Under the pieces are notes generated by a model that did not search any database, was not told the origin of the DNA, and worked only from the letters and a program-made list of their open reading frames with translations. DNA of 64,000 nucleotides from Sodalis endosymbiont of Henestaris halophilus (lineage in GTDB: Bacteria; Pseudomonadota; Gammaproteobacteria; Enterobacterales; Enterobacteriaceae): NCBI RefSeq assembly GCF_900161835.1, contig NZ_LT897836.1, forward strand, positions 1,178,001 through 1,242,000, read 5' to 3'. Numbering within the stretch: the first letter of the stretch is position 1; each line of letters begins with the position of its first letter. A program made the position numbers and the translations under genes. Positions 13,936-64,000 of the stretch are shown here, piece by piece.

Positions 13936-14529
13936 TCAGCGCTTTGCTTGTGATACAGTCACCATCGCAGGACGGATAAGACGGCCATTAAGAGTGTAGC
14001 CTTTTTGCATGACCATAATTACTTGGTTGGGCTCATGTTCATCTGACTCCAGCATTGTCATTGCCTGATGTATTTCGGGATTAAATGGTACATGCGTATC
14101 ACCAATCACATTAAGACCGAATTTGTATACAGCATCTAGCAAAGATTTGAGCGTCAGCTCGATTCCTTTTATAGTAGTGGAGGCCAGTTCACTGTTAATT
14201 TTACCGGACATTTCCAATGCGCGCTCCAAGTTATCAATAACTGGCAATAGCTCAGCAAAAAAACGTTCTAGCGCAAATTTATGTGCCTTTTCGACATCCT
14301 GTTCGCTACGGCGACGCATATTTTCTATTTCTGCCTTAGCACGCAGCAAGTTATCGCGCTCGCGTTGTTGGGCTTGAGCAAGCAATGCCTCCAGCTCAAC
14401 AATATGCTGATGTCGTGGATCCACGACATCAGCAGACTCTAGCGTTGCTTCCGCCTGTTGCTTTTTCTCTATCTCACTCTCTTGTGAAACTTGTTCGTCA
14501 GCAGTGTCATGTTCTTTACTACTTATCAT
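13936..14529 (-). CDS. grpE: Nucleotide exchange factor GrpE
   Basis: GrpE is the nucleotide exchange factor that releases ADP from DnaK in the Hsp70 folding cycle. The 197-aa length equals E. coli. The N-terminal third is acidic and polar, followed by a long coiled coil (about residues 40-110) with the typical [12 protein letters not shown] segment. [12 protein letters not shown] marks the start of the DnaK-contacting part, and the C-terminal beta domain carries [19 protein letters not shown]. The start has GGAG seven bases upstream. It is divergent from nadK and has its own sigma-32-type promoter in the 71-bp gap. Confidence 0.96.
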
Positions 14530-15527: not shown

Positions 15528-15545
15528 TTTTTGGTCAGAACCTTT

Positions 15546-15564
15546 TACTGTATAAATTCAGCTA
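15546..15564 (+). promoter_or_regulatory. Decayed LexA-type operator of recN
   Basis: TACTGTATAAATTCAGCTA starts 19 bp after nadK, where recN has its SOS boxes in E. coli. It matches TACTGT-A/T-rich-CAG but the distance between CTG and CAG is 8 nt instead of 10, so LexA binding would be lost. Its position makes chance less likely, but a single degenerate site is weak evidence. Confidence 0.35.
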
Positions 15565-16672
15565 CACTTTAGTTAAATACATTATTATGTTTATATATAA
15601 AAAGGCGACTATGTAAGGTTAATTAACCAACTATTAATTGCGCTATATGTGAGCTAGTTTAATATTGATTTAAATTCGGGGATGATTATAACTACAGTTA
15701 AGATCAACGCAAGGGAATGCATTGCAATAAAATATAATCTAGTATAAGTCGTGACGGTTATTCTTAAGCTAGTCATAATGCAGTAGACGTCAAAAAAAGT
15801 GAACACCTGCGTACGTTTCTTTATTTAACGACACTCCGTTTGCCTCCTCCTTTACCTGCTAGCTAGCAGGTGATTCCCTTGCTAACAGAAATGAATGTTT
15901 GATGTATTATTTTGTGAGCTAGAATGACCGCTCGCGCGGTTTTATCAATTATAAGCAAGTTAATAAGCTTCGCGTTCTACTGCTGCCTACTCAGACAATC
16001 AAAGCAGAGCTGCCTAGAGACCTTGTGCCCCACTAACAGACTTCGAACTAAACTTTAGGAGATAACTGCTTTGCAGTATTTATATGCACGCACTATTAAG
16101 TGCTGATCAAGGATAAGATATAAGCAGATCAGTCAAACATATAAGCTACTAGCAAGCAGTAGCTCAGTTAATTACTGCCACCCAAACAAAAACTAGAGTT
16201 TTAAGCGAATTAAGAAAATGGTAATTTACTTAAAGCTAGCTGCACACTACGAGACATGTCATGAGCAAACTAGTCAATATTGAAACTGTCTTTTATAGTG
16301 CTATCGCGTTACGCAAGTACGCTAGTATTTATTAGCTACCTGTAGCAAGTAAGCGGCTCTGCCAGAACCGACTTCTTAAGAATGCTAACAAATTTAGTAG
16401 AGCATATTACTCACAACATGTGAGTAGGTTTTGCTACTACGCAGTTTTAGCCAAAACCATGAATATACACTTTTATCCTGACGAGCTTAACGACGCGCTA
16501 GCGGTAATAAATTACTACAGTTGATTTGCTAAAAATGCGCAGGGAAACACCTAACAGCTACAGTCAGCTAAAGAATATCACTTCTCTCATTATGATAAAA
16601 AAATAATCTTTCCTTTAGTTCTTAAAATTGTCAAGGCTTATTATAATATACTTCAAAATAAAGGTAAGTATT
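15565..16672 (+). pseudogene. recN: Fossil of recN (double-strand break repair)
   Basis: The 1.1-kb gap between nadK and bamE is the recN locus in E. coli (553 aa). One readable piece is at about 16452-16550: KTMNIHFYPDELNDALAVIN followed after a stop by KNAQGNT, resembling RecN [22 protein letters not shown] and TNPGQP. The C-terminal third with the SGGELSR and ATPase motifs is absent, because bamE begins about 120 bp later. An 18-bp palindrome (15854-15871) also lies here. The relic is short, so the call rests largely on position. Confidence 0.45.
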
Positions 16673-17149: not shown

Positions 17150-17388
17150 CGAAAACTTGAGCGTCGGCCAGATAATACTGGCTCCTATGATTATCGTCAC
17201 AGAGTATTAACTCATAGTGAACACTAACTAATAATAAATATGTAGATTTTGTTAACGTCAAGATCGATGTTATGATTCGGTACTAACAGACCAAAGGCGC
17301 GTATTGTCTACTGCAGATTACCCCTCCTTTTTTAGCGCTAGTTACTAGCAACATTAAGGAACTAACAGAAAGTAAACTACCTTAACTA
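17150..17388 (-). pseudogene. rnfH: Fossil of rnfH
   Basis: In E. coli rnfH follows ratA on the same strand with overlapping ends. In the equivalent place on this minus strand, pieces occur in the right order: IVKVVYFL near 17370 (family VEVVYAL), NIDLDVNKIYI at about 17271-17239 (family DIDLEKNKVGIYS), and LADAQVFAQ near 17175 (family LIADPKELRRQ). Spacing between the first two pieces matches the roughly 95-aa ubiquitin-like protein. Stops interrupt each part. Confident as a relic because of ordered matches and synteny. Confidence 0.6.
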
Positions 17389-17392
17389 TATG

Positions 17393-17826
17393 TTAGGTAT
17401 TGTAAACCTCTTTGACACGGCTAGTGAAAGCCATGACTATGCTATTCATCATTTCTTTGAAACATCTCCAAAAGCCAGTTCGATAAATTGATTTTTAAAT
17501 GCAAAATCGAGATGAAAATCGACTTTACTTACCTCATTGCTAAGTGGAATAAAAAACCAATTGGCGGCAAAGTAGCTGAAAGGACCTTCAACCAAGCAAA
17601 TTACAATGCTTTTGTTTATAGTAAACATATTGTGAGTAGTAAATGATTTACTAATGCCAGCTTTAGATACATTTATTTCAGTGATCAACGCACTACCATT
17701 CTGCTTAAGCACTCGGATAGCGTTACATCCAGGAAGAAATTCCGGATAAGCGCTGATATTATTGACTAAAGTAAACATTTTCTCTGTGCTATAAGGCACC
17801 AGCGCGGAACGAATAATATGAAGCAT
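17393..17826 (-). pseudogene. ratA: ratA with a one-base frameshift near the 3' end
   Basis: RatA (YfjG/PasT) is a START-domain protein related to Coq10, in E. coli linked to ribosome association and respiration. The ATG at 17826 gives a match from residue 1 (SALVPYS, YPEFLPGC, VSKAGISKSFTT, VDFHLDF, IELAFGDV). After GDV the frame runs into TGA at 17449. Restoring one base near 17460-17462 continues as FKEMMNSIVMAFTSRVKEVY and ends at TAA 17393, matching the E. coli C-terminus and restoring about 145 aa. Thus one nucleotide has been lost in the codons for Val-Phe. The truncated 125-aa product lacks the C-terminal helix that closes the lipid cavity in this fold. It could be a fresh pseudogene, a tolerated truncation, or a sequence error. 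Confidence 0.85.
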
Positions 17827-17975: not shown

Positions 17976-18458
17976 ATGACAAATAAAAAAGCATACAAAG
18001 TCAACTCAACTACCATTGCGCAAAACAAACGCGTCCGACACGAGTATTTGATTGAACAAGAGTTTGAGGCAGGACTTTCGCTGCAAGGATGGGAAGTAAA
18101 ATCGCTACGTGCAGGCAGGGTAAACATAAACGAAAGCTATGTGTTACTTAGGGATGGAGAAGCTTATCTTTTCGGCGCTAGATTTCCACCACTACCGGTG
18201 GTGTCTTCCCATGTGGTCTGTGACCCCATAAGAACCCGTAAGTTACTATTAACGAAACGTGAACTCTATTTGTTATTAGAATATATGAACCGTAAAAACT
18301 ACACAGTTGTAGCGCTGTCGCTATATTGGAAAAACGCGTGGGTAAAAGTAAAAATCGGCAGCGCCAAGGGTAAAAAAGAACATCATAAACGTACAAGTAT
18401 TAAGGAACGTGAATGGCAGCGTGATAAGGAGCGTATTATGAAGCACGCCAGACGATAA
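17976..18458 (+). CDS. smpB: tmRNA-binding protein SmpB
   Basis: SmpB binds tmRNA and brings it to stalled ribosomes for trans-translation. The 160-aa length equals E. coli. The OB-fold core carries the family motifs [30 protein letters not shown], and TRKLLL; the [10 protein letters not shown] and KGKKEHHKR segments and the basic tail ending in MKHARR are intact, which act in the decoding centre in known homologues. There is no clear Shine-Dalgarno sequence before the ATG. The tmRNA gene follows 39 bp downstream, the standard pairing. Confidence 0.97.
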
Positions 18459-18497: not shown

Positions 18498-18878
18498 GGG
18501 GCTGATTCTGGATTAGACGGGACTTACAAAACTTAAGGTGCATGCCGAGGTGAGGTTGGCCTCGTAAAAAGCCTAAAAAAAATAATTGCAAACGACTCGC
18601 AATACGAATCTGCTGCATTAGCAGCCTAATCAGCTTAATAAACTGAAGATTCTCTCTCTCCCTAGCCTCCGCTCTTAGGACGGGGATCAAGAGAGATTAA
18701 ACACAGAAGAGATCGCGTATATGTCCTGCCTGGGGATAAAACGTTAAATCACATCAGGCTAGTCTATTAGTCGCGTGTCTATCCGCAGCTGACAGATAAA
18801 TGTAAAGATCAGACTAAGCATGTAGTACCAAAAGCGTAGAAATTCCGGACGCGGGTTCAAATCCCGCCAGCTCCACTA
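18498..18878 (+). ncRNA. ssrA: Transfer-messenger RNA
   Basis: The tmRNA rescues stalled ribosomes and tags the unfinished peptide for degradation. The sequence follows E. coli ssrA from GGGGCTGATTCTGGATT to the T-loop GGGTTCAAATCCC and acceptor CAGCTCC (18868-18874), discriminator A (18875). The resume codon GCA is at 18588 and the tag frame runs to TAA at 18629, giving ANDSQYESAALAA, 13 residues, longer than the E. coli ANDENYALAA but ending in the protease-recognised ALAA. The pseudoknot region with CTCTCTCCCTAGCCTCCGC is well kept. The final three bases are CTA (18876-18878), not CCA, so the CCA end must be added or repaired by tRNA nucleotidyltransferase. Confidence 0.97.
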
Positions 18879-19120
18879 GCTTTAGATAAAAAGAAACGAA
18901 AAGTACACAAAAGTGCCATTAGTTTTCATTACTGATTCATGACCAAAAATCCACTTATCTTGGTAAACGTCACATATTGATCAAGTGTTAAATGAACTAT
19001 AAATAACCTCACGATTATATATCGTAGAATAATTATCTTGTGTACATGTGAAGAAAACCAACTGCACTCAGAAAGTTATGCAATTTTGATGTCTATCAAG
19101 CGGCATAATAACATCTGAAG

Positions 19121-19222
19121 GCCGGGCGGAGAGATGTAATAAAATACCCACAAAGGGGAATATGTCCGGAGTTACTTTGCAGACTCAGTTGACGCCCGGC
19201 AGCCAGCATCTTATTAGATGCT
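19121..19222. other. Compact structured locus of unknown nature
   Basis: GCCGGGCG (19121-19128) pairs perfectly with CGCCCGGC (19193-19200), closing an 80-nt unit. Inside are possible short stems (ACCC/GGGG near 19146-19158, GAGT/ACTC near 19170-19187). A second perfect hairpin, AGCATCT-TATT-AGATGCT, follows at 19205-19222. The unit is about half G+C in a strongly AT-rich desert. It lacks a tRNA T-loop and does not resemble any riboswitch or small RNA I can recall. It may be a small RNA or the remains of a structured element. Confidence 0.35.
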
Positions 19223-22200
19223 ACTATAACTCACAAATTCCTTTGATATGCTAATTATATTCAAAACAGCTAAATATTACAGCCAAACGTTCATCATATC
19301 TGATAAAAACTATTACCAGCCTGCGCTGGTGTAATCAAAAACTTCAATATAACTTGCCTTCAGATAAAGATTAAAACGATAAAAGCGAGCTCAATTTAGA
19401 GTAACATCTTAGTAATCTACTACACGCCTAGATCGCTCGCACAAGTTCGCACTAAGCTAGCTTGTGCAAAGATGCTATCAACTGCCTTTAACGCTGCAAG
19501 AGTAAAATTTTAGTTACAAAGACACAATCTTTCACATGAAATATAGTTAACAAAATTATCAGAAATGTAGTGGCAAGCTGAAGTTGGCCAACTAAGTTGG
19601 GGGTATGATATTTCGCTTAAATTATTTATAATTATCCTGAATAAAAATAATTGCTTTTGCTATTTAAGATAGCATTCTTAACTCGGTTCTTAATCAACAT
19701 TACGCGCATAAAATGCAGTTTAAATTATTAATAACAGAGCAACTGTGCACAGCGCGGTATTAACTATTAAATAAATTAAATTGATAACGATGTAGAAAGA
19801 GATAGTATATTTAAACTAAAGAATTATATTCTAAAAATATGATGCTCTTGTTGTTGAATTCACTCAACGTTTATTAGCAATCGATATATGCAGAATGCAA
19901 TAATCAATCGCATTTTGTTAGGTCTTTAGTATATATCGAAATATATATCTTCACTGATACTTTTCGAACTAATGAATTTAATCCATAGCATGTTATGCTA
20001 CTGAATAAATGTGATTTAAAATTGGCACGAAAGCAATGATAGAAACATCACTTTTGTTTTAACCTATATTCCCTGAGATCAATATGATCAGTTAGATAAT
20101 TAGTTATTTGATGAAATATCTGGCAATATACAGATATTGATTCATAAATACAAGCGCGTAAACAATAAGAATATTAAATACCTCCGCTTCTTAATAACTG
20201 ATTTGTATTGTTTTAGTGCACTAAGATTTGAAACGACAGCGATATTATTGACATCTAGATATGAAACAATCGCATTACTTGTCAGTAACGCGGAGTTTAT
20301 TTATCAATCAATAGTCTGGGTAATGTTGCCCTTTCAGGGCGAATGCTCACTGTTAAAGCACACATAAAACCAAAGAACCGAGTTATTATCCTCCTGCTGT
20401 AAGTTACACAGCAAAAGAATAAACTACTACATTAATCATAAATATTAAAAGGCGTTGTAGTAACAACATGAAATAATACAAACCACATGAGCTGGCAAGG
20501 TAATTGCTTAAATAAGGAGATAAATAAATAAATTTTTTTAAACTTATAAAAACAGAAGGTTAACTAGTTAAGGCAACAAAAGCCTTTGTCGAAACAAAAT
20601 TGCTATATCATAAAATATTACAGTATCATTGTGTTACACGAATATAATAGAGCTTTTAAGGCTAAACGCGTCAAAAAATTGTTATACATTTATCTAATAA
20701 TTTATATTCATATGGTATAATTATATACCTTAATGTTAAGGTAGTATCCTAGCTTTTATGTAAGTCACGAATTGTAACATAATAATTGTAGGTATTTAAT
20801 CTTACAACAAAACAATACTATTAATATAATTATAGACATAATAATTAATATGAATGCTATGCTTATTTCTTCTACATATTTAGTTGATTTCCCTTTTAAT
20901 ACAAAATAATTCTTTATGTTATCCTAATAATTAAATATTTCTGGTCTTATATTTTACTTACGTCTATAAGTAATTATTTACTCTATAAAGTAGCGATACT
21001 TAACTACCTTCTTTTCAAAACAACGCGATCTACACTATGTTTGCGACTTAACATTAAAGCAGCAAATTACCGGTGGTTTTCTCTGTGCTCATCACAAGAG
21101 AAACTAGTCGCTAAATATTTCTCAAAGATTATTCATAGTGTAGTATCGATGATATTTTGCGCACAGCACTCCTTTATCAGCTAGATAGCCGTAAAAATAA
21201 AGAACGTGATCTGGGGCAATCGTTAAGCCAAACAGTTGGTACGGCCTCGGGGTTTTGAGAAATAGCCATGAGTTAACTCATATAAAATTTTAATAAAAAC
21301 TATAATCAACATTATTACCAGTGATATGCAGCATCAACCAATATTACAATTTCTAACTAAATCAAACATAGAGAATTTCTTGCCACAATTTATATAGTAG
21401 AAAAATATCTCACTGACCCGTTACTTAGAATTTACGGTTTATTTACTAAATCAGTGCTGAAAATTCATAAAGCACATGACTAAATACAAGCTTTATCAAT
21501 AAGCTTAGCGAACTTAAAGAAATAAATGTTGCAGTTTATGCCTTACATCGGTTTCATGTACAAAACCTCGAACGAGAAAATTTACCTTACCTAATAAAAA
21601 ACTCTTAACATCATTCATTAGTCAAAAACGGTACGAGAGTACCGCAACTCTAGCGTGAAAATCATTAATTTACCTATCATAAGGGCAAATTCTGAAATAC
21701 AAACGTAAGTGATTCCTAAGAGAAATAAGTTACTATGCGCTTTCGAACATAGATTGTCTATGTCAATCGAATGACCAGCGCTTCGAAGGTTAAGTAGCGA
21801 TGCATACATTAACTTGATCGAAGATTTTCATGGTATAGGAATAATAGATTTAGGTTGCAAACCTCATTATAACCATCCAACGCCGCAGTATTTATAAAAC
21901 ACTAAGAATACCAGGTTGTATATCAGCTAATGTTTGATGTTTGGATCTTCATAACAAAAATATTATTAACCAAAACTACACTAATATTCGTCAGTTAACA
22001 CGTCTGCTAATATTATAGGTCGACTAATTTGACCCGTAAGAGTGCATGCTACGTTACGCAACCCAACGGCTTGGTAACTAATCTCAATAATAAAAACATT
22101 GACGCTACAATTAAGCCGCAGAGCGATTACTATTCTGCATACTGTTTTTATAAGTTATATAACTTAGCAAAGCTTCTTTTATACAAAGAAAAATAGGAGT

Positions 22201-24360
22201 AGACTTTTGCTAAACTTGAACGAAGTCAGTTAAGCGTTTATTCCTCGTTTATGTTTTCCTCTAAAGGAAAGACGGTTTTAACGTTAAACATAGCTTTCGT
22301 CATAGTCCATTCTTAGTTACGACTAGATGCATGACATTTTGGAAAAATATGTAGCTAACAAGTCAAAATTCGGTGGTGTCAGATAATTGCCTCTTAACAG
22401 TCAGAACGAAATTAGCTACAACGATATAATACTGTATTCGGAGTGCTGCAGTAGTTTTTTATAAAAAGCTCAGTAAGTCCTGCTACTGTATGAACACGTC
22501 GGGCATGCGATACTACTTTTAATAAAAAATTTATGGAGAAATAAGAGATATATTATATATATCAATATATTTTGAATACTTTCAGGGAATCAAAGACCCG
22601 TATAGACTAAAATAACTAATGAATTTAAGTACAATATCTTTCTTCAGTACATCAGCATGTTACAGACTTCAAACGTTAATGATACATGTTATGATTCGCT
22701 GTTGTGCATTCTCTTATTTTTGTCTGCATCTACTATCTCCACCTCAAACCTAGCTATTAAGCTATGCGGTTATTTAAAATATTTTACAACACAAGACAAG
22801 ATTATCTAGCTGTCGGTTTCCAGTTAATAAGTCATTAATGACAGAACAGCGCACGACATCAAATCATATATGGGTTAACATTAGATGCCAGTCAATAAAT
22901 TATCTGCTCTGAAGTTGTTGAGCAACAGGGTATATTCTCTGCTCCACTCCTGTAGCCATACCAGTTAACCCTTTGATTCATTGGCAGCATAAGAGTTGCG
23001 ATTAGCTCGCATCCGCTCTACTTAATGTATTTTGTGCTTCATTTCATATTTTTCCAGATTAGGCCAGATAGGTATCTAGGCACTCCATAGCTTATGCTAA
23101 AATTAATAAAACAGATGCAGGGGCATTTTCGAAAAAAAACAGCACTAATAAAGTATTAATCAAATCATTTATTGTCTCTAATTCAATTTTCCGCACCAAC
23201 ATCGTGATCAGCACTTGCTCTCTACATGTTTGCCTTGTCAGCAATTACCTTATACTGCATGCAACTGACATGGCAAAAATCAACATCAGTAATAACTGAT
23301 GGCGGCTAGTAAGCGCACTTATATCATAAAGTTCATAACTAGTAAGTTACTTTAGCGCAGCCAAAGCTATCAGGCAGGTTGTAGTCAATAGCATTCTTTC
23401 TACTTTTCTAGCGCCTTAATCGAATTACATGCAAGATATTATAAAAGGCTAATCGGGTAAAGCTTTCATACATATGTGACGGGGCGGCATAACGGATATT
23501 TAATCGGTAAAGCGACACACGCAGCAATATCAGAGCTTGCTTTTTGATCTAGGAAAGTGCACTCGAACACGAGTTTTATCACCTAGAATAGCGATTCTAC
23601 CTTATGTTTATTAGTATCAGAGAAAATATTACGTAAGCACATGATAGCGGGGCAAAGAAGGTATCATACGAAGTTCCTACTGAGTTGAGTGGCTTTATAT
23701 AGTTGCTATTTATACCTCCAATTGAGGATAAGTTAGTATAAAAACGCCGTAGATAACGAGGGTTTCCTGGCCATGTGACGGATGGTGTGTGATATGAGCT
23801 TCCGGTGTCTTTAATATGTCACAAACTATACTCTTAGTTATTTTGCGTACATGTATATCCTACGTGGGGGGGGATACAGAGTATAAGTATGGGATTATAA
23901 TAAATCCATTGCTGGTATTTGTTAACATAACTACACTGCATTAGCAACTATAGATCACATTAATCCTTACCGCATGCACACTAAAATGCAATAAGGCGTA
24001 AGTTCCAATGCTAGCGATTTGATTATGTCCTTTCCCAGGGTTATTGGAGGCAAATAATATATTCTCCCTACGGGGTAAGGTTGAGGTTATCTTTATGCAT
24101 CTGGTTAGATTGATCAGATTTTGCTCGCGCTCTATGTTTTCATTAATTAAGTTACGCGCGAGACATAAAAATATTCTTGGTATAACACTATTAAACAAAT
24201 CTATTCTCTACTTTATAATTGATGTTCATAAACAAACTATGATGATTTACAACGGTATGATTAATCAGCGCATCTGAACGATCAAAGAGATTCGCGTATT
24301 TATCAATTACATAATCATCACCTTGTCCAGGTTGATAAAAAATGCTAAAATTACTCTTTG

Positions 24361-24600
24361 TCATTTACATAATAATGCGTTACTTAAAATAAATCAGTCA
24401 ATTTGGCACAAACGTCAGCGCCATATATTTTTTATCAACACCTTCACATGCATATCACCTACTTCTATAGGACGATCGACGCGTCGCTGTTCACCACCCC
24501 AGCGCAAAATGGTATTAGCATTTTTACTCCCTTTAAGAATTTCCCCTTATAAGATAACACGTATGACAAGTCACGCTTCTCATAAAGGCTTTGTTCATTT
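24361..24600 (-). pseudogene. Probable fossil of an OmpR-family response regulator
   Basis: On the minus strand the string TKPL is followed by a frameshifted stretch reading like REL-VIRV-LIRG (the receiver end and linker of TorR/ArcA/OmpR-like proteins), then without a stop LKGSKNANTILRWGG and EQRRVDRPIEVGDMHVKVL, ending in a broken LCQID-FIL like the LTPxEFxLL of the winged-helix domain. Several stops are present. The pattern of linker, IxVGDMxV strand and EF-LL helix fits the family, but the exact member cannot be named. The rest of the receiver domain is not recognisable. Confidence 0.45.
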
Positions 24601-24705
24601 TAGCCCCTTAGTAATTTACATAGTACTGTTAATTTATTTTATAATTTTTAATGATGGTGATCGCAGAATAATTTTACCTGCAGAGATAAAAACGCAATAA
24701 CAGGT

Positions 24706-24732
24706 CTTATACACAATTAGTTTGTGTATAAG
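24706..24732. repeat. Perfect 11-bp inverted repeat
   Basis: CTTATACACAA and TTGTGTATAAG around TTAGT. On the plus strand a TTTTT stretch follows about 10 nt later, so it could be a terminator. Each arm also contains TTATACACA, which matches the relaxed DnaA box TTATNCACA, in opposite orientations; there is no cluster of further boxes around. Confidence 0.5.
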
Positions 24733-25367
24733 CCATTAACTTCTTTTTCAGCGTGAAGTTCTATATTATTTTCTGATTTCAGTGATCATCTTAAATGTAT
24801 GACGTCTATGATTTAGGTACTAATACTAATGATTATCACAACCGAGTTGATTTAAGCTGACGATAATCTATAACAAAATCTAACATTACCACCTCATGCT
24901 ATTGACGCTATTTACACATATCAGGGATTCTTTTGATCGGTAGCGTAGTGCCTATCGCTGGAGACTGTGATTAAAATAAGACGCTTTGATACACAATATA
25001 ACTTATGTGTTTAGTTTTCCTGTGAAAAAGATTGATTAATGAAATTATCGCTATCGGTAGCGATATCTGCTGACTCATAACATTGTCTGCAGCGCAGTAT
25101 ACCTTTGAGTGATCATATTGACTAACTTGCAAACATCGTTATGTTGTATTTACCTTCAAACTACAATAATGATTGTAATCGTTTTAACCGATTGTTTCCT
25201 TGATCATCATTCCTAACAATATGATAAACAGGCAGCAATCAGATAAGTTGGTCGCAGTTGTCAACTGATTGCATTCGTGTTGCTTCTTGCTGTAATAAAA
25301 TGACGAGCGATGCTTAAGTCAGGCATACGGCTTAGACTACATCCTTGTGAATGTTAGGCAAAATGAT

Positions 25368-25401
25368 GGCCAAACGTTTTCTCACTAGAAAACGTTTGGC
25401 C
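25368..25401. terminator. Perfect 15-bp hairpin in the desert
   Basis: GGCCAAACGTTTTCT and AGAAAACGTTTGGCC around CACT. It is GC-capped with an A/T run, terminator-like on both strands, though the following T-runs are short. No intact gene lies within several kilobases. It may be the terminator of a gene that has since been lost. Confidence 0.5.
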
Positions 25402-27644
25402 TAACTTTGGGTTAAAATACTGTCTGCTCAAATACGATATTTTAATCGATAAGAGGCTTATGATTGCTTATTGATTGTATAGACTAGCAATCTTAATCTC
25501 CGGTTTGAGATATGTTACCACCATCATCATTAGCCTATTAGTACTAATGATGCTCAACAAAGACGATATTTGCGCAAGTTGCGAGCGAAAACGTACGGTT
25601 GATTAACCTTCTGATAACGTAATTTTTGATGAATTAAAGAGTGTAAACCATGTAGATTGCTGACGCTCGTCCTGCTCTGCAAATACACATAGCTGAAAAT
25701 TCTCATTAGGTTAATAAAAGTCATTATTATTTCCAACTTAAGTAAACGCCATGCTTACATGCAACTTAATAGATGCACCATCTAGAGTTGTTGGCTAAAT
25801 AAAATCATTGACATTTAGAGTGATAATCATTCTTAACGAAGATTAAGGGAAAATTTCTGTTGCCTGCCAAGCAACATGGTTAATCAGTAAAGATGAGTAT
25901 CCCTATAAACCATCAGAATAATTTTAGCTAGTTGTTCTTTGCGCTTTTATATAAATATGATATTTTATCGTTATCATCTTAAAATATTAGCTTTCAGCCA
26001 AGTCTAGCAATGTCAATATATCAACTTTTTCTGTACTGCCTCAATGCAGTACAATTTAGTTGACATGAATATATGGACATGCATATTATTCATTAAATTA
26101 AGTTTTAATCAGTACTCATCTTTATAATAACCATCAATAGCAGTAAGAAATATAACTATAAATGTCAAGAGTTGCGATTTTGATCTAGTTAAAATCGGCG
26201 GCTATTTTAAATGTTATTGGCTAGTGAATCAGCGCCAAAAAAGATTACTTGCGGCGAAAGCCTATCTACAAGATTATACTTAGTTTCTTACTAAAATATA
26301 CCTTGCCGTAATAGCGTTAATCATAACCATTTATGATATTTACCAGATATGTTATTTACTATAAGTATTTATAATTAAATAGGTAAATGAATATGATTAT
26401 CTTCTTAAATTATAAGATTATCGTATACTTAAAGTTTGTTCGTAAGGAGAATATAAATATTATTTTAATAAAACTAATGATGTATTATTTAGGTACTTTA
26501 AGGTAAAGATAATTATGCTTGTGTATTTCATTGCAATATATTGCACGACCATAGCCAGAATAAATAAAACTTTATTTTTGCAATGAGAAAATAGATTGTA
26601 ATGAATGTAATTATGTTACAATTCAAATTAATAAATACAAGTTTACGAGTTATTTCACTTATTTATACTAATTTAGTTAAAATAATGCATATCCTTTACT
26701 AATTCATACACATATGCTTATATGTACCATACAATTTATAAGGCTTTAATGCGATAAATGATACAGAGAGCTTTTATATTTAATAAAATCGTTAATAATC
26801 TCATTAAGATAAAAGTAGTTATGTTTTCAATATTTTATCGTAAAAGCAACAATATACAAAACCACTTAAGGACCGAATTTTGGTATAGAATACATGTTTG
26901 CACTTAAAGTGCAATTATATCTATTTCACGATTTATAAGTGTTTATTTACTAACATCTCAATCGTAACGTTAAAAGTGCATATGAATTTCCTGAATTGCA
27001 GGTTGGCTTATTAAGCCATAAAATTAATATTATTAAATGTCAATCAATCATATAGCAATAAAATATAAACATGATATTCCATGATTCTCAGAGAGATTTA
27101 TATAATATGAACGTATTTTGTTTTTCTATCAATTTATGAGAAATGCATTGCCATAAGCTATAGTAATCAATTTCACAAAAACTTAGTTGTGCTGTGACTT
27201 TATACAATGTTTATTGTTAAATATTGTATGTTTATGAGAAAATAATTTTGTATCAAGTATTTATCTCTAGGTGTAAATTGCATTTATTATTTAATATTAT
27301 GTGTATTGTTGCACCTTATTAAAGCATTAGGTTTTTATAGTAACTCCTAGCAAAGAAAGATATATAGTTTAGTTCAAATGCATTATTTCATGCACATTTC
27401 ATAATATTCTTCTACATAGGATATACAGTTTAAAATTAACTAAGGTTCATGAAACCATTTACTATTTAATAACAATCTTACTATCATTAATAGTAATTAC
27501 TTAAGTATAATAAATTTAGTTAAATAGTAGTATTATCTAGTGTACCTCCTTATCATTACAACAGTTAAGTAACATACTATAATTAGAAAATATATTAACT
27601 AGATTTTAATTTTAGCTTCTACTGCATTAGTAATATAAAATACC

Positions 27645-27672
27645 ATAGCGATATTATAAATAATATCGCTAT
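27645..27672. repeat. 28-nt near-perfect palindrome
   Basis: Arms ATAGCGATATTAT and ATAATATCGCTAT separated by AA. There is no T-run beside it. The surrounding sequence is extremely AT-rich and without genes. It does not match the E. coli dif site or another site I know. Confidence 0.5.
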
Positions 27673-30387
27673 AGGTCATCAACTCTAAAACTTGTTCATA
27701 AATTTTACTTTTATCTTATTTATCTGATTATAACATATAGATGGTTAGCTGACATTGTAAAAATCCTAACTCATATGTAATATATTGTTTATTTTGATAT
27801 CTTTATTGATCAATTAATAATTACTTTAATTGTACTTTATGATGATTAAAATAAACAAAAATAAATTAACTGCTAAAAGCATAAAACAATACGAATAAAA
27901 TTTACGGGATACAAGTCCAATGTATTTATTAAATAAATCATGTTAATGCTATAAGTATAGTTTTAAGTTAATTAAAGATGATTTAACTTAAAGTAATATA
28001 CACTAAAATTTTTATTTATAAATACTAGTAATTTACTAAAATCCTTAGCTATATAATTAATATATTAAGTTTATAATTATTGTCATTATAATAAATATAG
28101 AAATTTGTGGCACGCATTATTGCGTACCTGCTGCTTATAGAAATAACTTATAATTATATTATTAGTTTCTTTTTTTGTTGTAACAAAGTGCATAGTTACG
28201 AGGTGGTAGTAAAATAACCGTAATAAATTAGCTAAATCAATAACTCAATAAATCATAATTAACTGCTAACCATCGCTATATTTATTAGAATATATTTATC
28301 ATACCAAAATATTTATTTTCTGTTATTGTTGACTTATTATACCACATCACAAAATTAACTTGTCAACAGCATCGTTACTTTTTATACATGAACAGGCTAT
28401 AAATCTGATAAATCAACGCTGATTAATATTTTGCAAAATATAGCTAATGAACGTATGTGGCTTTTAACCACCATAAAAGTGCTCAAAATATCAAAGGCAC
28501 TCGTGCGTATAGCAAAATATATCTTTAAGAAAGATATTTTAGTTATCTGTATTAATTTTACTTTTACATGAATAACCTTATAAATATGTTAAAAACCTTA
28601 TGGTTGCTCTTAGTTAATTACAAGTTATATTTTAATGTACTATCACTATGACCATGATTATCTTTAGTTACTTATTGGTTATCAATGAATTAATTTTATC
28701 GTTTCTAGATATAAATAAATCAAATAAACATGGATTTAGGTAAAAATAGCATTCCACCTTTAATTACGTTGTTGTTTAATATTTATTAAATATAACTGCT
28801 TTAACAGTTGGGAAAACTATATATGTCACAATTTATTACATGGTCTTAGCGATACAAGCTTTCATGCAACTAACAAGTGTTACGTCCACGTTGGGTTAAA
28901 CTACTTGACTTACTAGTCAAGTGCTACAGCGCAACTCGGCTGTTATGGAATTATAAACTATATGATACAGGTGCTGATTTGGAAGAATAACTATTATTGC
29001 CCATTCCAGGCAATATTAATTTAAGCATCATTATCTTGATAACTAATTTTAGATTAAATCTAGACTAGCCAGGCGCTAGCGATACAAAGTGATGTTTCTC
29101 TTGTTACCCATCGTTTTCGAGATATACCTCGTGATTAGTTATTTTATGGTGTGCGATAATATCACGGGATCATAACAATTTTGATTGTACTTATTTTATC
29201 ATTCTATTATTTCCTTTTAACTTTTCAATTATACATATTTTCACTAGAAAATTCAGCATGTAGATATTTAAAATATATCAACATGAACTGTATGCCTAAT
29301 GCAAGAACTAGAAAGTCTCAATAACCAGTTTTTGCTACCCTACCATGCTTACAAATATGCTGCTCAATGAAAGTGAGCAATAGTCATTAAAAGTAATAGA
29401 TAAGTAAATAAGTAGGTTTCAATAATGCATAACAACATAACTAATAAGAGCCACATACCAGATAACCTGTGTTGTCTGACCCCCCTGGATTGTTCTACGA
29501 GCTAATACTTACCTTCTTAGTCACAATATTTTCAGTGCATTCATTTTTACTGTAAAACAATGTCTTGACTTGTTTGATTAATTTGCTAGTGAGCATACTG
29601 CCCGTTTTGTTTTGATAATCTACTCGAGCGTAATAATTAAAAATCTCATAAAGCACTTACAGACTTATTCAAATACGGCAGCTCTACTCCCGTTGCATGC
29701 CGGGGAAAATCAAACATACCTCTGATACTTACGAATTAAAGACAGAGTAGCATGATTTTGTTAATTTTTTATCGTGCAAAAATAAGCTCCTTAAATAGGA
29801 TTGACGTTCCACATGCAACTTACAACTTTATACCTCTATCATTGTAGATGTAATAGTTATCTCTTGGTTTATTACTGTAACGTAATCATCTAATATACTT
29901 TTCTTATCTAGCTTTCGACAAAGATAATTGCATTCTCAAATAAACTTAGCCACACAAACAAATTAAATTAAAAATCGGACGTGTTATATTATTCACTCAA
30001 CAAGCATTCCAATATACTTACTTAATTGAGTAAATGAGCAAATTCTTCCATGGAAGAATAATATTCTTTTAATGCTGTGAAAACATAAATAAACTAGAAT
30101 AGTTATATTAACATACTTGATCTTACACTTTATTTGCAAATGAAGCTGAACAAAGAGAAAACCGTCAAGTGTATATAACATGATAGCCCATAATTCGCTA
30201 TCTTAAACGCGGTTTATTTGTTGTCCAATCACGGGTTGGTGCTTAAGGTTTGTATAACAACTCTGACGAACTGCATTTGCTCCGGGGAGCAAAATGAAAG
30301 GTGCGGTGTAGAGAGTTGCTATAAAATCGCGTTGTTTAATTAATTACGTCGCGCAATGTATGCGCAGTCATTTTTTTGAGAAAAATC

Positions 30388-33939: not shown

Positions 33940-34524
33940 ATGTCCATTACAGTAATAAAAGATAATTATTTTATTAATCAATATGTAACAATGCAGATGC
34001 GTGAAACATAGCATAAATGTGGATACCGCTGGACGCTAAAGCATATATTACTATTACTTTCTAAATTAACATCAACTATATATCACAATTATCGATCTAG
34101 GCTTGCTAGATAAGGACGGTCTTAATATGATTCACTGCTTGCGTCGAAATTAGGTAATCTACCTTATTTGTACTCACTAGTAATGGATGACGGAAATAAA
34201 GTTAAAAGTCTATAAGTAGACGCCAATGGCTATTCATCACTAAACTATTTCATTTGGAAGAAATTATGGCACGCGTACAGGCGTTGATGCGCCGTAACAT
34301 CGATCTCGTATCGCGGATCATCAAACTGCCAACTATTCTTATTAGTCTTTCGCGCAGTGAACTCACGATTAACAAAATTAATATCAATGCTCGGCCGCGT
34401 TTGAGTTTAATACTATTAAAGTCGTCAACAAGGATTCGCTCATGTTGTATCTTTATCCTAACGCTGAATTACAACGCGATAGTTACACTATCTAAATTGG
34501 TCATGGGTCGTCTGAAAATATAGA
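33940..34524 (+). pseudogene. phoP: Fossil of phoP (magnesium-response regulator)
   Basis: Starting at ATG 33940 with AGGAG upstream, the frame reads MSITVIKDN (family MRVLVVEDN). Further in come IIDLGLLDKDGLNMI (34088 region; family AIVDLGLPDEDGLSLI), then MEEIMARVQALMRRN (34254 region; family IEEVMARMQALMRRN), LSRSELTIN, VNKDSLMLYLYPNAEL in another frame, and VMGRLKI before a stop near 34524. In-frame stops and frameshifts break it, and the last 20 or so residues of the winged helix are missing. The match covers nearly the whole 223-aa protein, so the identity is secure. PhoP is dead here. Confidence 0.9.
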
Positions 34525-57589: not shown

Positions 57590-58996
57590 TTACGCTGTCC
57601 ATTCCGTGTGAAAGACACCTTCCTTATCGATACGCTTATAGGTATGAGCGCCAAAATAATCACGCTGAGCTTGAATCAAGTTAGCTGGCAAAACGGCAGA
57701 ACGATAACTATCATAATAAGCGACAGCAGCAGAGAATGTCGGCGTCGGGATGCCATGCTGAACCGCATATGCCACCACATAGCGCAACGCTTGCTGATAG
57801 TTATCAGTAATTTTTTTAAAATACGGTGATAACAAAAGGTTAGCGATAGTTGGTTCCTGGACATAAGCATCGGCAATTTTTTGCAAAAATTGCGCCCGAA
57901 TAATGCAGCCAGCTCGGAAGATTTTTGCGATTTCGCCGTAATTTAAATCCCAATGATTTTCACTTGAAGCTGCTTTTAATTGAGAAAATCCCTGAGCATA
58001 AGAAACTATTTTGCCTAAATAAAGTGCTTGGCGGACTTTTTCAATAAAGTTATCTTTATCACCGCTGAACTCTTCAGTTTGTGGTCCAGTCAGCACTTTT
58101 GATGCCTGTACACGATGCTGTTTTAAAGATGAAAGGTAACGAGCAAACACTGATTCGGTAATAAGACTTAGCGGCTCTCCCAAATCCAGCGAGCTCTGAC
58201 TGGTCCATTTACCAGTTCCTTTATTAGTCGCCTCATCGAGAATTACATCTACAAGAAACTGACCATGCTCATCCTTTTTTACAAAAATATTTTTTGTGAT
58301 GTCAATTAAGTAGCTGTTTAGCTCGCCTTCATTCCATTTTTTGAAAATGCTGGCCAACTCTTCATTGCTTAAATATAGCACATTTTTTAGTAGCGCATAA
58401 GCTTCGGCAATTAACTGCATGTCACCGTACTCGATGCCATTATGCACCATTTTAATATAATGACCGGCGCCATCAGGACCAATATAAGTCACACAAGCTT
58501 CACCGTCGGCGCGTGCAGCTATTTTTTTTAGGATTGGGGCTACAAGTTCATAGGCGTGTTTCTGTCCGCCGGGCATAATAGACGGACCCTTCAGCGCACC
58601 CTCTTCACCGCCAGAGAAGCCTGCACCGATAAAATTAAAACCATCTTTTGATAGCTCGCGGTTGCGGCGGATGGTATCCTTATAAAAGGTATTGCCACCG
58701 TCTATGATAATATCGCCCTTTTCCAAAAAGGGCTTTAGCAATTTAATGGTTTTATCGGTCCCTTCACCAGCCTTAACCATCAAAAGAATAAACCGCGGTT
58801 TTTTAAGCGAATGAACGAAACCTTCCATGCTATAGTAGGGAATCAGCTTTTTCATCGGATTTTTAGAGATTACTTCATCTGTTCTCTGACGAGACCGGTT
58901 AAAAATAGATACACTGTAACCGCGACTTTCAATGTTTAGCGCTAGGTTTCGACCCATTACTGCCATTCCGATGACGCCTATCTCTTGTTTAAACAT
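57590..58996 (-). CDS. gnd: 6-phosphogluconate dehydrogenase
   Basis: Gnd oxidatively decarboxylates 6-phosphogluconate to ribulose 5-phosphate with NADP, giving NADPH and pentose. The 468-aa length equals E. coli. The NADP-binding [10 protein letters not shown] is at residues 10-19, IIDGGNT near 97, and catalytic Lys182 and Glu189 in [17 protein letters not shown]. The C-terminus ends with the conserved [10 protein letters not shown]-like [19 protein letters not shown] lies seven bases before the ATG. NadK in this window provides the NADP it uses. Confidence 0.97.
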
Positions 58997-61900
58997 TAAG
59001 CAACTCCAAAGAATGAACTCATGTCGCCATCAGTCGGCAACAGATGTAGTATGTGTTACATGTTAACCCAAGCAGATATCCTGCGGGTAATCTAGTTACA
59101 ATAGTAACGACAAGCCTATATAGTAGGCCGTCAACTTGAGATAAATACCAGCATAATTATGACCTATCCATGTTGACGTTAATAATGCTTTTTAACGTTC
59201 GCGCACCTGTTTGTTATAGCGCCATATTTTAATTATAAAAAAACAAAATTAACGCATCACATCGATTAAATGTGATGCTAATTTATACCATCACTACCTA
59301 AAAAGGTTTACCGATGGATACTTATTTATAATAGGTGTATGTGAAACACCGATTGCACAACTAATAAGTAGTTTGATGTGCATTACTCTCCTAAAGGATA
59401 TAAACTGACTAATTTTTCAGGCCGCCAATTTGAAAACTGTAAATACTATGCTTTTTAAGTGCGCACTAGTAGCTTATAGCTTCGTAGAAGCTATAACGTA
59501 CTTAGTTGAATACTATTACACAACTGAATAATAATCTACTAAAATTGTACCATAAAACTAGAAATAGTTAACTTATAAAGTTTCAAGCTTTATACTACAT
59601 TTATATTCAACCTTGAAATAAGGTACAATTGTATTATACGCATAATGCCACTAAGAAAATTTTTGCATGCACAGATTGGGTATTCATAATATAGGGTTTC
59701 ACACTCAAACAACCGCATAATCATTTTATTCCGCAGATCATGGGAGGTATTTAACACCTCACCATTTGTTACCTATGATTATAATACGTAATCGAACACA
59801 CCAAAGTCACTAACTAAAATACCGGTCAGATATATAACTCACGCAATATAAAGAAAATATGAATTAGCCAGCAGCATTAAAAATCAGTAAGTAATATCAC
59901 GCAACATAAATAAGATAGTTAACTCTGATTGTACAACGATCTGATAAAAGCGCTATGCAACACCGGTACATATTTGTTGCATAACCCCATGATTACCATA
60001 AATTAGATTTTATCTAGGATCACACCTAATGATCCATAACGTTATAATCGGCAGCACCACTGCATCTCCTAGAAACAAAATACAAAGACGCACTGCAATT
60101 AAAGAGAAACATCAACTTTTTTGACCATAGCATTAAAATATCTCGTCATTTTTCGAAAAGTCTTACGCAGTAATAAACCACTGCTGCCGCATGCTTAACA
60201 GCATGACTTTACGTAAGTACCAGAACAATTCCATTAAATAATAGCTAAATAAGTAAAGATAAAATAATCATAAAATATCGAGATATTGCCGAATTACTAC
60301 CAACAAGTAAATAGTAATTTAAACTTTTAATAAAATAGTTACAATAACAATGAGTGTCGAAGCTTATTATATCTATTAATTACCGTAATGAAAGGCCTCC
60401 TACGACTTCTTTAGCCATATTTTCTTGCCCATTTTAGTTCCTGGGGCTTAACCTACTTAATAATATGAATCTAGTATTTTGTTATCCTACACACCACAAT
60501 GTACGTTTACACCCCAACTGACAGCTGCCTCCACCGCTTTTAGGCAGCTTGAATCTGACTTCACATACGACCTCTCCCGGAGTGACACTCTATGGAGTCA
60601 CCATGCATTGCGCACAAAACGAAGAATTGTTTTATTAATACGCGATCGGCTTTCGCCTTTACCACGATTTATCATCTTCAAACTACTGCAGATGTTACCA
60701 CATTTTAGTTTCGGCATATACAACCTCTCCTTAATTGCGTTTTAATTAACGTTGCTTGTAAGAAAAACATGCTATGCAGCATTTGCTTTGGGGTAAATAC
60801 TGCTTAAGATTTTTTAGCATCAACAGCGCTATAGCTTATGCTAGCACCTCATTTTATCAGTAATTTACGATTAAAATATCAAATTCATTTTTTATTTATT
60901 AACGATTACTTTGTTTTTTCAATGCAATATGATATATTTAGTCATTGTCATAATTTATAAACAAAACACTTGCTATCACATATTAACTGAAATTAACATG
61001 ATTAATTACAAATACATATAAATTAATAAACATTTGAACAATCGCAAGTCATTGCTAAATAATAAAATATTTGTTTTATGTAACTTATAGTTAAAATCTA
61101 TTACGCACGGCGGCATAATTAAGGCGCAACCACTAATTAAGACCTTAAAATCAATTTATTTAAGTTATAGCCTTAAATTTGTTTGCTATAAACACAAAAT
61201 TATAATACGATACCTATAATTTGTTTGTATTTTACAGCTATTTATTACAACAATAGTAAGTATAAAATGAAAATTATCACTAAGTCAATTGCGCGCTAGC
61301 TTTTATCGCATACAATAAATAAACATAAGCCTTTTGGTAATAACTTTACCGCGTGTAGATAATTTATGCTTTCAGAGAAAGTCCTTACGGGCAATACTAT
61401 TACAATTATTGCCAACATCTACTATATTTTATTATTAACAATAGTTAATAAATTAAAGATGAATAACAAATTGCTTTATTACTAATAACTTATGTATAAG
61501 TAACATCTAAATATTTTAGATTAAAGTAATTCAAACGTTAGTTAATACAGTATGCTTTCGTGTCAATAGCATATTACTTAACATTCTTATGAATTCTTGA
61601 ATTAACCTGCCTACTTTTAATTAATCATATTTATAATTCTAAGTAAATTATATCAATATCAATTTTGTTTTATAAAACACAAAATTTTACTTATACTAAT
61701 TGAAATGTTTTTTCAAACTGATTACATATCATATTAATATCAATTATTTTATATTTTGTGCGGTTATATTTGACAGCAATAATTTTATTATTAATACACT
61801 AATTAAATTTATTTACATTTTAACTACAATGATAAGGTTTAATTTTGCTTTCAATTTTAAGTTAATATCAGCAAAGCTGGGTTTAAAGCTTGCTTATAGC

Positions 61901-64000
61901 TAATTAATTTATATCATAGTAATTTATTACTAATAAATTATTTAATTATCACCGTCTTTTGTAGACGGTGGTGAATTTTTCTATAGCTGATGCATATCAC
62001 AAAGCAGGTTATGGTACTAATACTTGAAATGATATAAACGATACGTAACGCCTTAATATTCATAATTGCCTTGACTTGCTGATGCAAGTCAACATCAAAA
62101 CACGTATTTAAACTTTATTCAAATATTATTTAAAGCATTGTGCTGCTCGTCATTTTAACCTCCGCAAAGCGGACAGATTCTCGTTCTTGCTTTTATAATA
62201 TATATTATAAATATATATCTTCTTCATTTATATTACTGCTATTAACAAATATAGTTACTAACTTAATAATACATACGAACAATGATAATTAACTTAATAT
62301 AATCTTATAAACTACAACACTAACAAAAGTTAGCATTTCATTTATTATATTAAATATTTCCTATAGTCTTTTAATAGGTTATCTTGCTTATCTTTATTAC
62401 CCACTCAAGATTTTCTTTCATAGAAATTCTGAATATGGGGAAAACTATTCCTTACGCTGATCTTTCTTACGAAAATAACCGTGGTCAATCGTGAACTTTA
62501 TACCGATAGATATCCACTAATCTATCAAAGTAAGATTATTAAGATTATTTTACCCTATTGAACTTAGCTATGAATATTAATTCATAATTTAAATCTTTGC
62601 AATACGTTATCTTTTATCTGCTTAAAAGCAACCGTTAAGTAACATAGTGCTTTCTTTTTGACTTTTTAAATTATTGAATCGCATTACTGTTACCAATGTT
62701 TTGAAGACTTACTTTCCCTGGTTTCACATTTTTAGTTTTTGTACTTTTATTAATTTTATGCTCAAAGCACTGACGCAAGAATCGATCTACATCGAACTAA
62801 TAATAAAACTATCTCAAACACAATAAACTCGCAATGGCATGAAGGTAAGATTAAGAATCTTAATTAACTACGTAATACCTTTCTACATCGATAATATTTT
62901 GATTTGTAAATTCACATTAAATGAGCGCTCCAAAATTTGGAGTACCATCACCAGGTGCTTAAGTAACTCAGAATTACCAGTTAAACGGTCAAGCCGTAGT
63001 CTATTATGATCTAAAGAGCTATTAGCTATTTCTTCGGATACTGCATTACAATTAATGCGCGTTAACTCTATTTAAATTAACTACTAAATATTCAGCTCTC
63101 TCATTTAGCGTTGTCTAACATTATAATAACTGATTTTATTAATAGCTGGTAAAATATATAGTCATAAAATTACGTATCTCAATTATCCTTGACGCAGGTA
63201 ATTGATTAGTCAAAGCTTGAGATCAAGCAACCTTTTGCTGCATCGAGATAATAAGGGCTAAAAAATTGCGAACACATATAAAATAGAGGTTATTTCCTGT
63301 TGTCATCCATTATACCAGACAAATTTAAACTATTCATCACAAAGATTGCAGGCAAAAGTGTTTATGATTAGATATTCACGGTAATTGTTCGTCTGTACAT
63401 TGCAACCGGTAATTGCCATGACATTATAAATTAGGCTCTGGGCAAAACTTAAGATAAGTTGGTTGCTAAATTATTAGGGTTAGGGGCAGCACGTTATCTA
63501 TTAAAGAGCTATTAACTATAATTAGGTTGTTCTGTAGTAACTGCGCTTTGACTCTGAGCTTGCGCGTGATTGCTGGCAACACGCTACTAACGCCCTCTAA
63601 GGTATACGGATTTATTATCCTAACTACTGGAATCTAATTAATACACCGGTTCGTTGCTTAACAGAGAGCTGATTTTGTCCACTCAAAGTACTGTCATTAA
63701 AGCTCAAATATAATTCACTAAGCGTCAAGCTTTGATTGATAAAAGAATAATTAACTTAAAACAATATCTACGTCAATGCGTTATTCCAGCAAGCCATAGA
63801 TACGCTGTCAATAGCTACATTACGCATATTAACTATGATTTCACGCAGGTATTGAATTAAATCTAGTCTACTATTGAGTCCGATAGACATATCTTGTTAC
63901 TCAAGCCTGAGATGCTCGGCACATTGTATACATTCTTTTATACTGAATCCTGTTTTATTTGTAGTGTACATTACATAAATTAAGTCACTTATTGACATGA
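58997..64000. other. Gene-free right end
   Basis: About 5 kb without an intact gene. A hairpin at 61950-61970 stands out. From about 63,400 to the edge the sequence is less AT-rich and has protein-like strings on the plus strand (for example KRQALIDKRIINLKQYLRQ near 63,730-63,780), suggesting a younger pseudogene crossing the window edge; I cannot name it. Confidence 0.5.
61950..61980 (+). terminator. Terminator-like hairpin
   Basis: CACCGTCT and AGACGGTG around TTTGT, followed by GTGAATTTTT. Shape fits a rho-independent terminator on the plus strand. The only open frame before it (61700-61903) is low-complexity and not convincing, so this probably marks a lost gene. Confidence 0.5.

What the first reader, a model, noticed from the sequence alone, without database searches (positions are those of the whole stretch)
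17393..17826. ratA broken by a single-base loss near its end
The frame is intact and well conserved for 122 codons, then one missing base in the Val-Phe codons (17460-17462) leads to TGA. The shifted frame downstream still encodes the conserved C-terminus (MAFTSRVKEVY). This looks like a very recent inactivation, or a product rescued by slippage, or a sequence error.
Basis: partly seen in the sequence, partly recalled or inferred. Interest (0 to 1): 0.6.

Follow-up and report, generated by a model that had tools for sequence, protein, structure and literature searches.

The report
Freshly broken ratA in shrinking symbiont
A small respiration-helper gene (ratA) in a shrinking, probably insect-associated bacterial genome has lost one base near its end and is most likely a very young dead gene, an ordinary event in such genomes, although a sequencing slip cannot be excluded without the reads.

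Summary
On the minus strand, ratA is open from ATG 17826 for 125 codons to TGA 17451-17449. The conserved C-terminus continues in the -1 frame to TAA 17395-17393. Homologues are common: matches in 46 of 60 relatives and 290 of 392 family genomes, own genome counted in both. All 29 relatives whose gene I read run through to the C-terminus. Both halves still show purifying selection, so the lesion is recent, or it is an assembly error. Its exact place is open within about 12 bases. The surroundings are decaying: 22 conserved ORFs sum to 24,795 of 64,000 bases, and remnants of recN-like and ratB-like genes flank ratA. No other RatA-family copy was found, yet the five ubiquinone-synthesis proteins I looked for are intact. 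RNA-polymerase slippage is unlikely (no long homopolymer). A -1 ribosomal slip at A_AAG (17458-17455) is possible but would be weak. Verdict: a very young pseudogene, ordinary; interest low.

The parts
17449..17826 (-). Open 5' part of ratA: ATG 17826, 125 codons, TGA 17451-17449
   Evidence: NCBIfam NF007999 RatA E 7.8e-46 (155.9 bits, cut-off 258); Pfam PF03364 E 3.3e-23
17459..17470 (-). Stretch in which the window has one base fewer than its relatives (exact place unresolved)
   Evidence: gap placement against 36 relatives; the nearest six favour or tie the 17470-17466 end, the sum over 36 favours 17462/17461
17393..17458 (-). Conserved C-terminal tail of ratA in the -1 frame, 21 codons plus TAA 17395-17393
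17455..17458 (-). A_AAG tetramer in the upstream frame; a -1 slip here would enter the tail frame (speculative)
   Evidence: sequence; chance of at least one in the 16-codon overlap 6.4%; GGAG 8 nt before its second base
17449..17452 (-). AUGA: stop of the upstream frame overlaps an ATG of the tail frame (possible reinitiation, speculative)
   Evidence: ATG 17452 is in the tail frame
17416..17435 (-). 7-bp hairpin, 19 nt downstream of A_AAG
   Evidence: -9.8 kcal/mol and z -3.97 when cut out alone (chosen after seeing it); z -1.41 in its 55-nt context
17236..17328 (-). Decayed remnant of the next gene of the operon (ratB-like)
   Evidence: blastn 68.7% E 0.022 (17328-17248), tblastx 55.6% E 6.9e-4 (17316-17236) to the region after ratA in G004; name recalled from gene order, not searched
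15544..16276 (.). Decayed remnants of what G004 has between nadK and bamE (recN by recalled E. coli gene order, not searched)
   Evidence: three blastn pieces 67-70%, E 5.7e-11 to 1.3e-6
17976..18458 (+). Intact divergent neighbour smpB
   Evidence: NF003843 E 3.4e-59, above cut-off
18498..18878 (+). tmRNA (ssrA) beside smpB
   Evidence: RF00023 229.2 bits
16655..17029 (+). Intact neighbour bamE
   Evidence: NF008585 E 1.5e-54, above cut-off

Best explanation
This is a very young pseudogene of ratA. RatA is the single-domain START-fold protein that recent work describes as a bacterial Coq10-like ubiquinone chaperone. A one-base loss near codons 120-123 ends the protein after 125 residues. That removes the second half of its long C-terminal helical segment, so the product is probably unstable or inactive. 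The gene lies in a strongly reduced genome whose relatives are Sodalis-like (inferred). The operon partner and a nearby gene decayed earlier; ratA is simply the latest to go. Shown: the frame break, uninterrupted relatives, purifying selection up to recently, decayed neighbours, no other family copy found. Inferred: loss of function, cause by drift, recency in time.
For: Frame break and conserved tail. 45 of the other 59 relatives have an uninterrupted match with an open frame of 146-204 codons; 290 of 392 family genomes have a match, own included; in the 29 of those 45 whose loci were returned the gene runs to the C-terminus (29 of 29). pN/pS of the first 120 codons against nine relatives is 0.176-0.268, and from the counts the 21-codon tail gives about 0.20-0.35 against 0.19-0.27 upstream; both are far below 1, so neutral decay has been short. 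Some loosening is visible: ratA has the highest dN/dS of 21 genes compared with G004 (0.163; the others 0.033-0.132). Neighbours: recN-like and ratB-like remnants. Conserved ORFs sum to 24,795 of 64,000 bases. Many small family genomes lack a match: the 20 no-match genomes listed are 0.2-1.1 Mb (82 more not listed). An intact homologue from a viral contigs locus models with helices 113-128 and 130-142 (mean pLDDT 85.3); the 125-aa product's last helix is 113-119 (mean pLDDT 73.7).
Against: No decay beyond the single lesion is visible, so an assembly or read error gives the same picture. The ubiquinone proteins I looked for are intact (UbiA, UbiG, three Ubi hydroxylases; the rest of the pathway was not searched), so the chaperone may still have a substrate and loss is not explained by loss of its pathway. 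Several reduced genomes keep ratA (for example 0.8 Mb and 1.4 Mb genomes at 80-81% identity). The dS values are near saturation and the tail has 21 codons, so dating is rough. The pLDDT comparison is partly a comparison of different sequences, with six rows.
Confidence: 0.77

Rival explanations
1. Sequence or assembly error: the gene is intact in the organism and one base was missed in the assembly.
For: A clean single-base difference with conservation on both sides; no reads or second strain available; the only genome held for its genus.
Against: The site is not a long homopolymer (longest run nearby is T4). Of 24 relative-gene rows in the surveyed parts, only one other is split between frames, and that one is an old remnant, so there is no sign of widespread indel error. 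ratA has the highest dN/dS of 21 genes.
Confidence: 0.13
2. Leaky rescue by -1 ribosomal frameshifting at A_AAG 17458-17455: a small fraction of ribosomes slips to AAA and continues in the tail frame, giving a 144-aa protein with up to three changed residues at 121-123.
For: A_AAG heads the efficiency order of bacterial tetramers (PMC4066793, abstract and passages); a GGAG lies 8 nt before its second base, within the 6-17 nt that paper scanned as stimulatory; only 2 of 34 A_AAG sites in 22 conserved genes of the window have such a sequence. Leaky expression of the homologous pasT sufficed for complementation in E. coli (PMC11988751, Results).
Against: Tetramers without the pseudoknot gave on average 0.147% against 0.112% without motif in E. 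coli. The hairpin is 19 nt away, whereas 5-9 nt is typical and 12-15 nt a minority (PMC5009743 passages). The motif was picked after the fact; A_AAG alone has a 6.4% chance. In 29 of 29 relatives read the gene is in one frame, so the frameshift is not conserved.
Confidence: 0.05
3. Both halves are made: the AUGA overlap at 17452-17449 lets ribosomes reinitiate and make a 19-residue C-terminal helix that completes the 125-residue part in trans.
For: ATG 17452 is in the tail frame and overlaps the stop; start-stop overlaps are a common coupling device (general knowledge).
Against: The ATG is an ordinary Met codon also present in the nearest relatives, so the overlap is a by-product; a 19-residue helix would have to be stable and bind in trans, for which there is no evidence.
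Confidence: 0.02
4. Transcriptional slippage restores the frame, as reported for poly-A tracts in Blochmannia and Buchnera.
For: The mechanism is known in insect symbionts (PMC3017870 passages), and RNA-level correction in C tracts is reported in Sodalis glossinidius (PMC7067036 passages).
Against: Those tracts are long (9 or more A counted in Blochmannia genes, C8-C9 in Sodalis); here the longest run in or touching the overlap is A5 at its edge and T4 inside.
Confidence: 0.01
5. The 125-residue product is itself functional.
For: In the model the START-like beta sheet and the first part of the last helix remain.
Against: The tail is present in 29 of 29 relatives read and forms the end of the helical segment of an intact homologue.
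Confidence: 0.02

Closest known systems
RatA / PasT of Escherichia coli (NCBIfam NF007999, Pfam PF03364; Coq10-like START protein)
   Same: Same family over residues 1-124; divergent from smpB and followed by a ratB-like remnant and bamE; the start appears to correspond to the short (Met14) form that PMC11988751 reports as the one made in E. coli (inferred from length, not aligned to K-12 here).
   Different: The conserved last 19-21 residues lie in another frame; below the NCBIfam cut-off (155.9 against 258 bits); partner gene decayed.
Young pseudogenes of Sodalis-type and other insect symbionts
   Same: Single small indel, conserved remains, sparse decaying genome. The table in PMC11879575 gives 1,108 and 1,771 pseudogenes for two Sodalis genomes (passages).
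   Different: Nothing of kind; only the gene differs.
Frameshifted symbiont genes possibly corrected by slippage (Blochmannia vafer, PMC3017870, passages)
   Same: Otherwise intact gene with one frameshift in a reduced genome.
   Different: No long homopolymer at the lesion.

Membership tests
RatA/PasT (Coq10-like START protein) | Sequence family match over the length | tested here: inconclusive
   NF007999 E 7.8e-46 over residues 1-124 but 155.9 bits against a cut-off of 258; PF03364 82.8 bits, above 23.4
RatA/PasT (Coq10-like START protein) | START-like fold of an intact member | tested here: met
   Model of an intact homologue (not of the window) matches START/cyclase structures; CC1736 1t17 E 1.0e-10, TM 0.74; the window part matches 1t17 by sequence, E 1.4e-11
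RatA/PasT (Coq10-like START protein) | Complete C-terminal helix in the same frame | tested here: not met
   TGA at 17451-17449; tail in -1 frame
RatA/PasT (Coq10-like START protein) | Gene order smpB / ratA / ratB / bamE | tested here: met
   smpB, ratA, remnant, bamE in the order of G004; the ratB name is recalled, and ratB itself is a remnant
Type II toxin-antitoxin pair | Intact antitoxin partner | tested here: not met
   Only a decayed remnant at 17236-17328; PMC11988751 (abstract, introduction, part of the results, discussion) argues RatA toxicity is an annotation artefact
Programmed -1 frameshifting gene | Slippery motif in the frame overlap | tested here: met
   A_AAG 17458-17455; 6.4% by chance
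Programmed -1 frameshifting gene | Downstream stimulator at normal spacing | tested here: not met
   Hairpin 19 nt away
Programmed -1 frameshifting gene | Frameshift conserved among relatives | tested here: not met
   29 of 29 relatives read are in one frame
Transcriptional-slippage rescued gene | Long homopolymer at the lesion | tested here: not met
   Longest run touching the overlap is 5
Transcriptional-slippage rescued gene | Mixed mRNA pool | not testable with these tools
   No RNA reads held

The most novel reading that the evidence does not exclude
The lesion is a chance-made compensatory recoding site: ratA keeps working at trace level because ribosomes slip at A_AAG (helped by the GGAG 8 nt upstream) or reinitiate at the overlapping AUGA, so a gene scored as dead still supplies a ubiquinone chaperone in a genome that keeps ubiquinone-synthesis genes.
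Probability: 0.05. Interest if true: 0.5.

Novelty: new member of a known kind. Interest (0 to 1): 0.13.

Why it matters
Taken as a pseudogene it is one more snapshot of stepwise gene loss: in one stretch, a decayed recN-like gene, a decayed ratB-like gene, and ratA caught at its first visible mutation while ubiquinone-synthesis genes are still intact. It suggests that the Coq10-like helper can be lost, or tolerated at trace level, before the pathway it serves. It does not change any general view.

Tried and rejected
Close relatives by peptide scan of genome contigs: 32 pattern matches, none confirmed. A 20-base exact scan around the lesion gave three records of unrelated organisms, taken as chance. 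Viral contigs gave 47 loci at 66-70% identity, six of which were translated and five used for the fold alignments. A downstream RNA structure looked unusual in a 77-nt fold (z -3.24, 3 of 200 shuffles as good), and its first hairpin cut out alone has z -3.97; but in the 55-nt context from the tetramer onwards z is -1.41 and the spacing is wrong. Promoter and terminator scans gave counts near the shuffled means (6 against 4.1 and 2 against 0.9). A second copy in the genome was sought and not found: one PF03364 match only. The idea that RatA was dispensable because ubiquinone synthesis is gone got no support. The toxin reading was set aside after PMC11988751 (abstract, introduction, first part of the results, discussion read). 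A paper search for at least 4 of the terms ratA, pseudogene, endosymbiont, Sodalis, ribosome association toxin returned 0 papers.

Rows dropped: one search read minus-strand loci on the wrong strand and was redone. The scripts failed to locate ratA in L100 (G172), so dN/dS used 9 of 10 loci. In one search the loci L003 and L004 were left out as duplicates of G026 and G004. The overlap filter removed the relative's own ratA frame, so ratA rests. Of the 24 rows one is an antisense frame and one a paralogue; rows under 70 bits were not printed. Window 58400-64000 was not used to place syntenic regions (searches cover 18400-58399).

Full report
What is there. On the minus strand ratA starts at ATG 17826 and stays open for 125 codons to TGA 17451-17449. 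NCBIfam names it RatA (NF007999, E 7.8e-46, residues 1-124, 155.9 bits against a cut-off of 258) and Pfam PF03364 (E 3.3e-23). Read in the -1 frame, the next bases encode KEMMNSIVMAFTSRVKEVYNT and then TAA 17395-17393. Searching the own genome with the G004 protein gives two matches in two frames, residues 1-126 and 104-143. tblastn gives the same picture with G004 (1-125 and 118-144); with G026 only the first piece was reported.

Relatives. 46 of 60 relatives, the own genome included, have a match; all 46 matches are free of stops, and the 45 others have open frames of 146-204 codons. In the family 290 of 392 genomes, own included, have one. The window's genome is the only one held for its genus, so no sister strain could be compared. 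Loci were returned for 29 of the 45; in 29 of 29 the frame runs through to the C-terminus, 140-147 residues from the match start. The nearest relatives have 144 aa, so the expected length is 144, not 145.

Where the base is missing. A gap-placement count against 36 relatives gives the lowest mismatch sum at 17462/17461 (806), then 17468/17467 (828). The six nearest relatives have a place at 17470-17466 (Gly120-Arg121) as best or tied in 6 of 6; it beats 17461/17460 in 4 of 6 and ties in 2. I leave the place open within 17459-17470.

Age of the lesion. Against nine relatives, pN/pS of the first 120 codons is 0.176-0.268. Pairs without the window are mostly lower: 0.015-0.155 for G004 against the eight others, 0.132-0.228 for G062. 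The tail in its own frame is similarly constrained: dN 0.158 and dS 1.57 against G004, with 0.149 and 0.92 upstream; over the nine relatives pN/pS computed from that table is about 0.20-0.35 for the tail and 0.19-0.27 upstream (21 codons and near-saturated dS, so rough). If the gene had drifted neutrally for long these would approach one. Of 21 genes compared with G004, ratA has the highest dN/dS (0.163; the others 0.033-0.132). That may be loosening before or after the lesion, or simply a faster gene.

Surroundings. smpB, bamE and nadK are intact beside it, as is a gene at 13936-14529 that I take for grpE by recalled gene order. A tmRNA gene lies at 18498-18878. Between nadK and bamE only fragments remain of what G004 has there (15544-16276, 67-70%, best E 5.7e-11), and after ratA only a fragment of the next gene (17236-17328, tblastx E 6.9e-4). 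I call them recN and ratB from recalled E. coli gene order. In the surveyed parts one more gene is split and eroded (33989-34517). The 22 conserved ORFs sum to 24,795 of 64,000 bases, and G+C is 0.366; short genes and genes without a counterpart in the G004 stretches fetched are not counted. The genome is 1,622,395 bases in one contig. The best relatives have 4,513,140 bases in one contig (G026) and about 5.2 Mb in two (G004); these sizes agree with the Sodalis pierantonii and S. praecaptivus columns of a table in PMC11879575 (passages). 'Candidatus Sodalis baculum' is a recalled candidate and was not tested.

What the gene does. PMC11988751 (abstract, introduction, first part of the results, discussion) reports that E. 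coli RatA toxicity comes from a wrong start codon, that the short form is the one made, and that deletion gives small colonies, in line with a Coq10-like ubiquinone chaperone. The window's start appears to correspond to that short form (alignment to 144-aa homologues; inferred). The genome keeps UbiA (TIGR01474, 354.4 bits, above cut-off), UbiG and three Ubi hydroxylases; the rest of the pathway was not searched. There is no other PF03364 match in the genome. An intact homologue models with helices 113-128 and 130-142 (mean pLDDT 85.3) and matches START-type structures such as 1t17. The 125-residue product models less well (73.7) and its last helix stops at 119. Loss of function is inferred, not shown.

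Rescue. Transcriptional slippage needs a long run; the longest touching the frame overlap is A5 at its edge, against 9 or more in the Blochmannia counts (PMC3017870 passages) and C8-C9 in Sodalis glossinidius (PMC7067036 passages). For ribosomal -1 slippage, the overlap of 16 codons holds an A_AAG (17458-17455), which has a 6.4% chance. A GGAG lies 8 nt before its second base, a feature of only 2 of 34 A_AAG sites in 22 conserved genes of the window. In E. coli the responsive tetramers ranged from 0.26% to 5.6% with A_AAG first (with the IS3 pseudoknot, as I read the passage), but averaged 0.147% without it, against 0.112% without motif (PMC4066793 abstract and passages). The nearest stable hairpin is 19 nt away. 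A slip would change up to three residues at 121-123. The stop also overlaps an ATG of the tail frame (AUGA), so reinitiation is conceivable. Both are chance by-products in my view, but they are testable.

Verdict. A very young pseudogene in a decaying genome, with sequence error as the main rival. Ordinary.

Noticed in passing
window 15544-16276: Eroded remnants of what G004 carries between nadK and bamE (recN by recalled gene order), 67-70% in pieces.
   Followed up: partly
window 17236-17328: Short eroded remnant of the gene that follows ratA in G004 (ratB-like by recalled gene order).
   Followed up: partly
window 33989-34517: A 223-aa ORF of G004 matches at about 42% or more in two frames, apparently an older pseudogene.
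   Followed up: no
window 18879-30335: More than 11 kb after the tmRNA with a single ORF of 110 aa or more (24323-24700), no DNA match to G004, and no Rfam family or tRNA found.
   Followed up: partly
L109 (own genome 384585-385079): A second UbiA-family stretch, below the cut-off, with one TGA and one TAG inside, apparently a further pseudogene.
   Followed up: no
G410 (family search): A 4.6-Mb relative has ratA in two matches with best E only 1.2e-20, perhaps another broken copy; not read.
   Followed up: no
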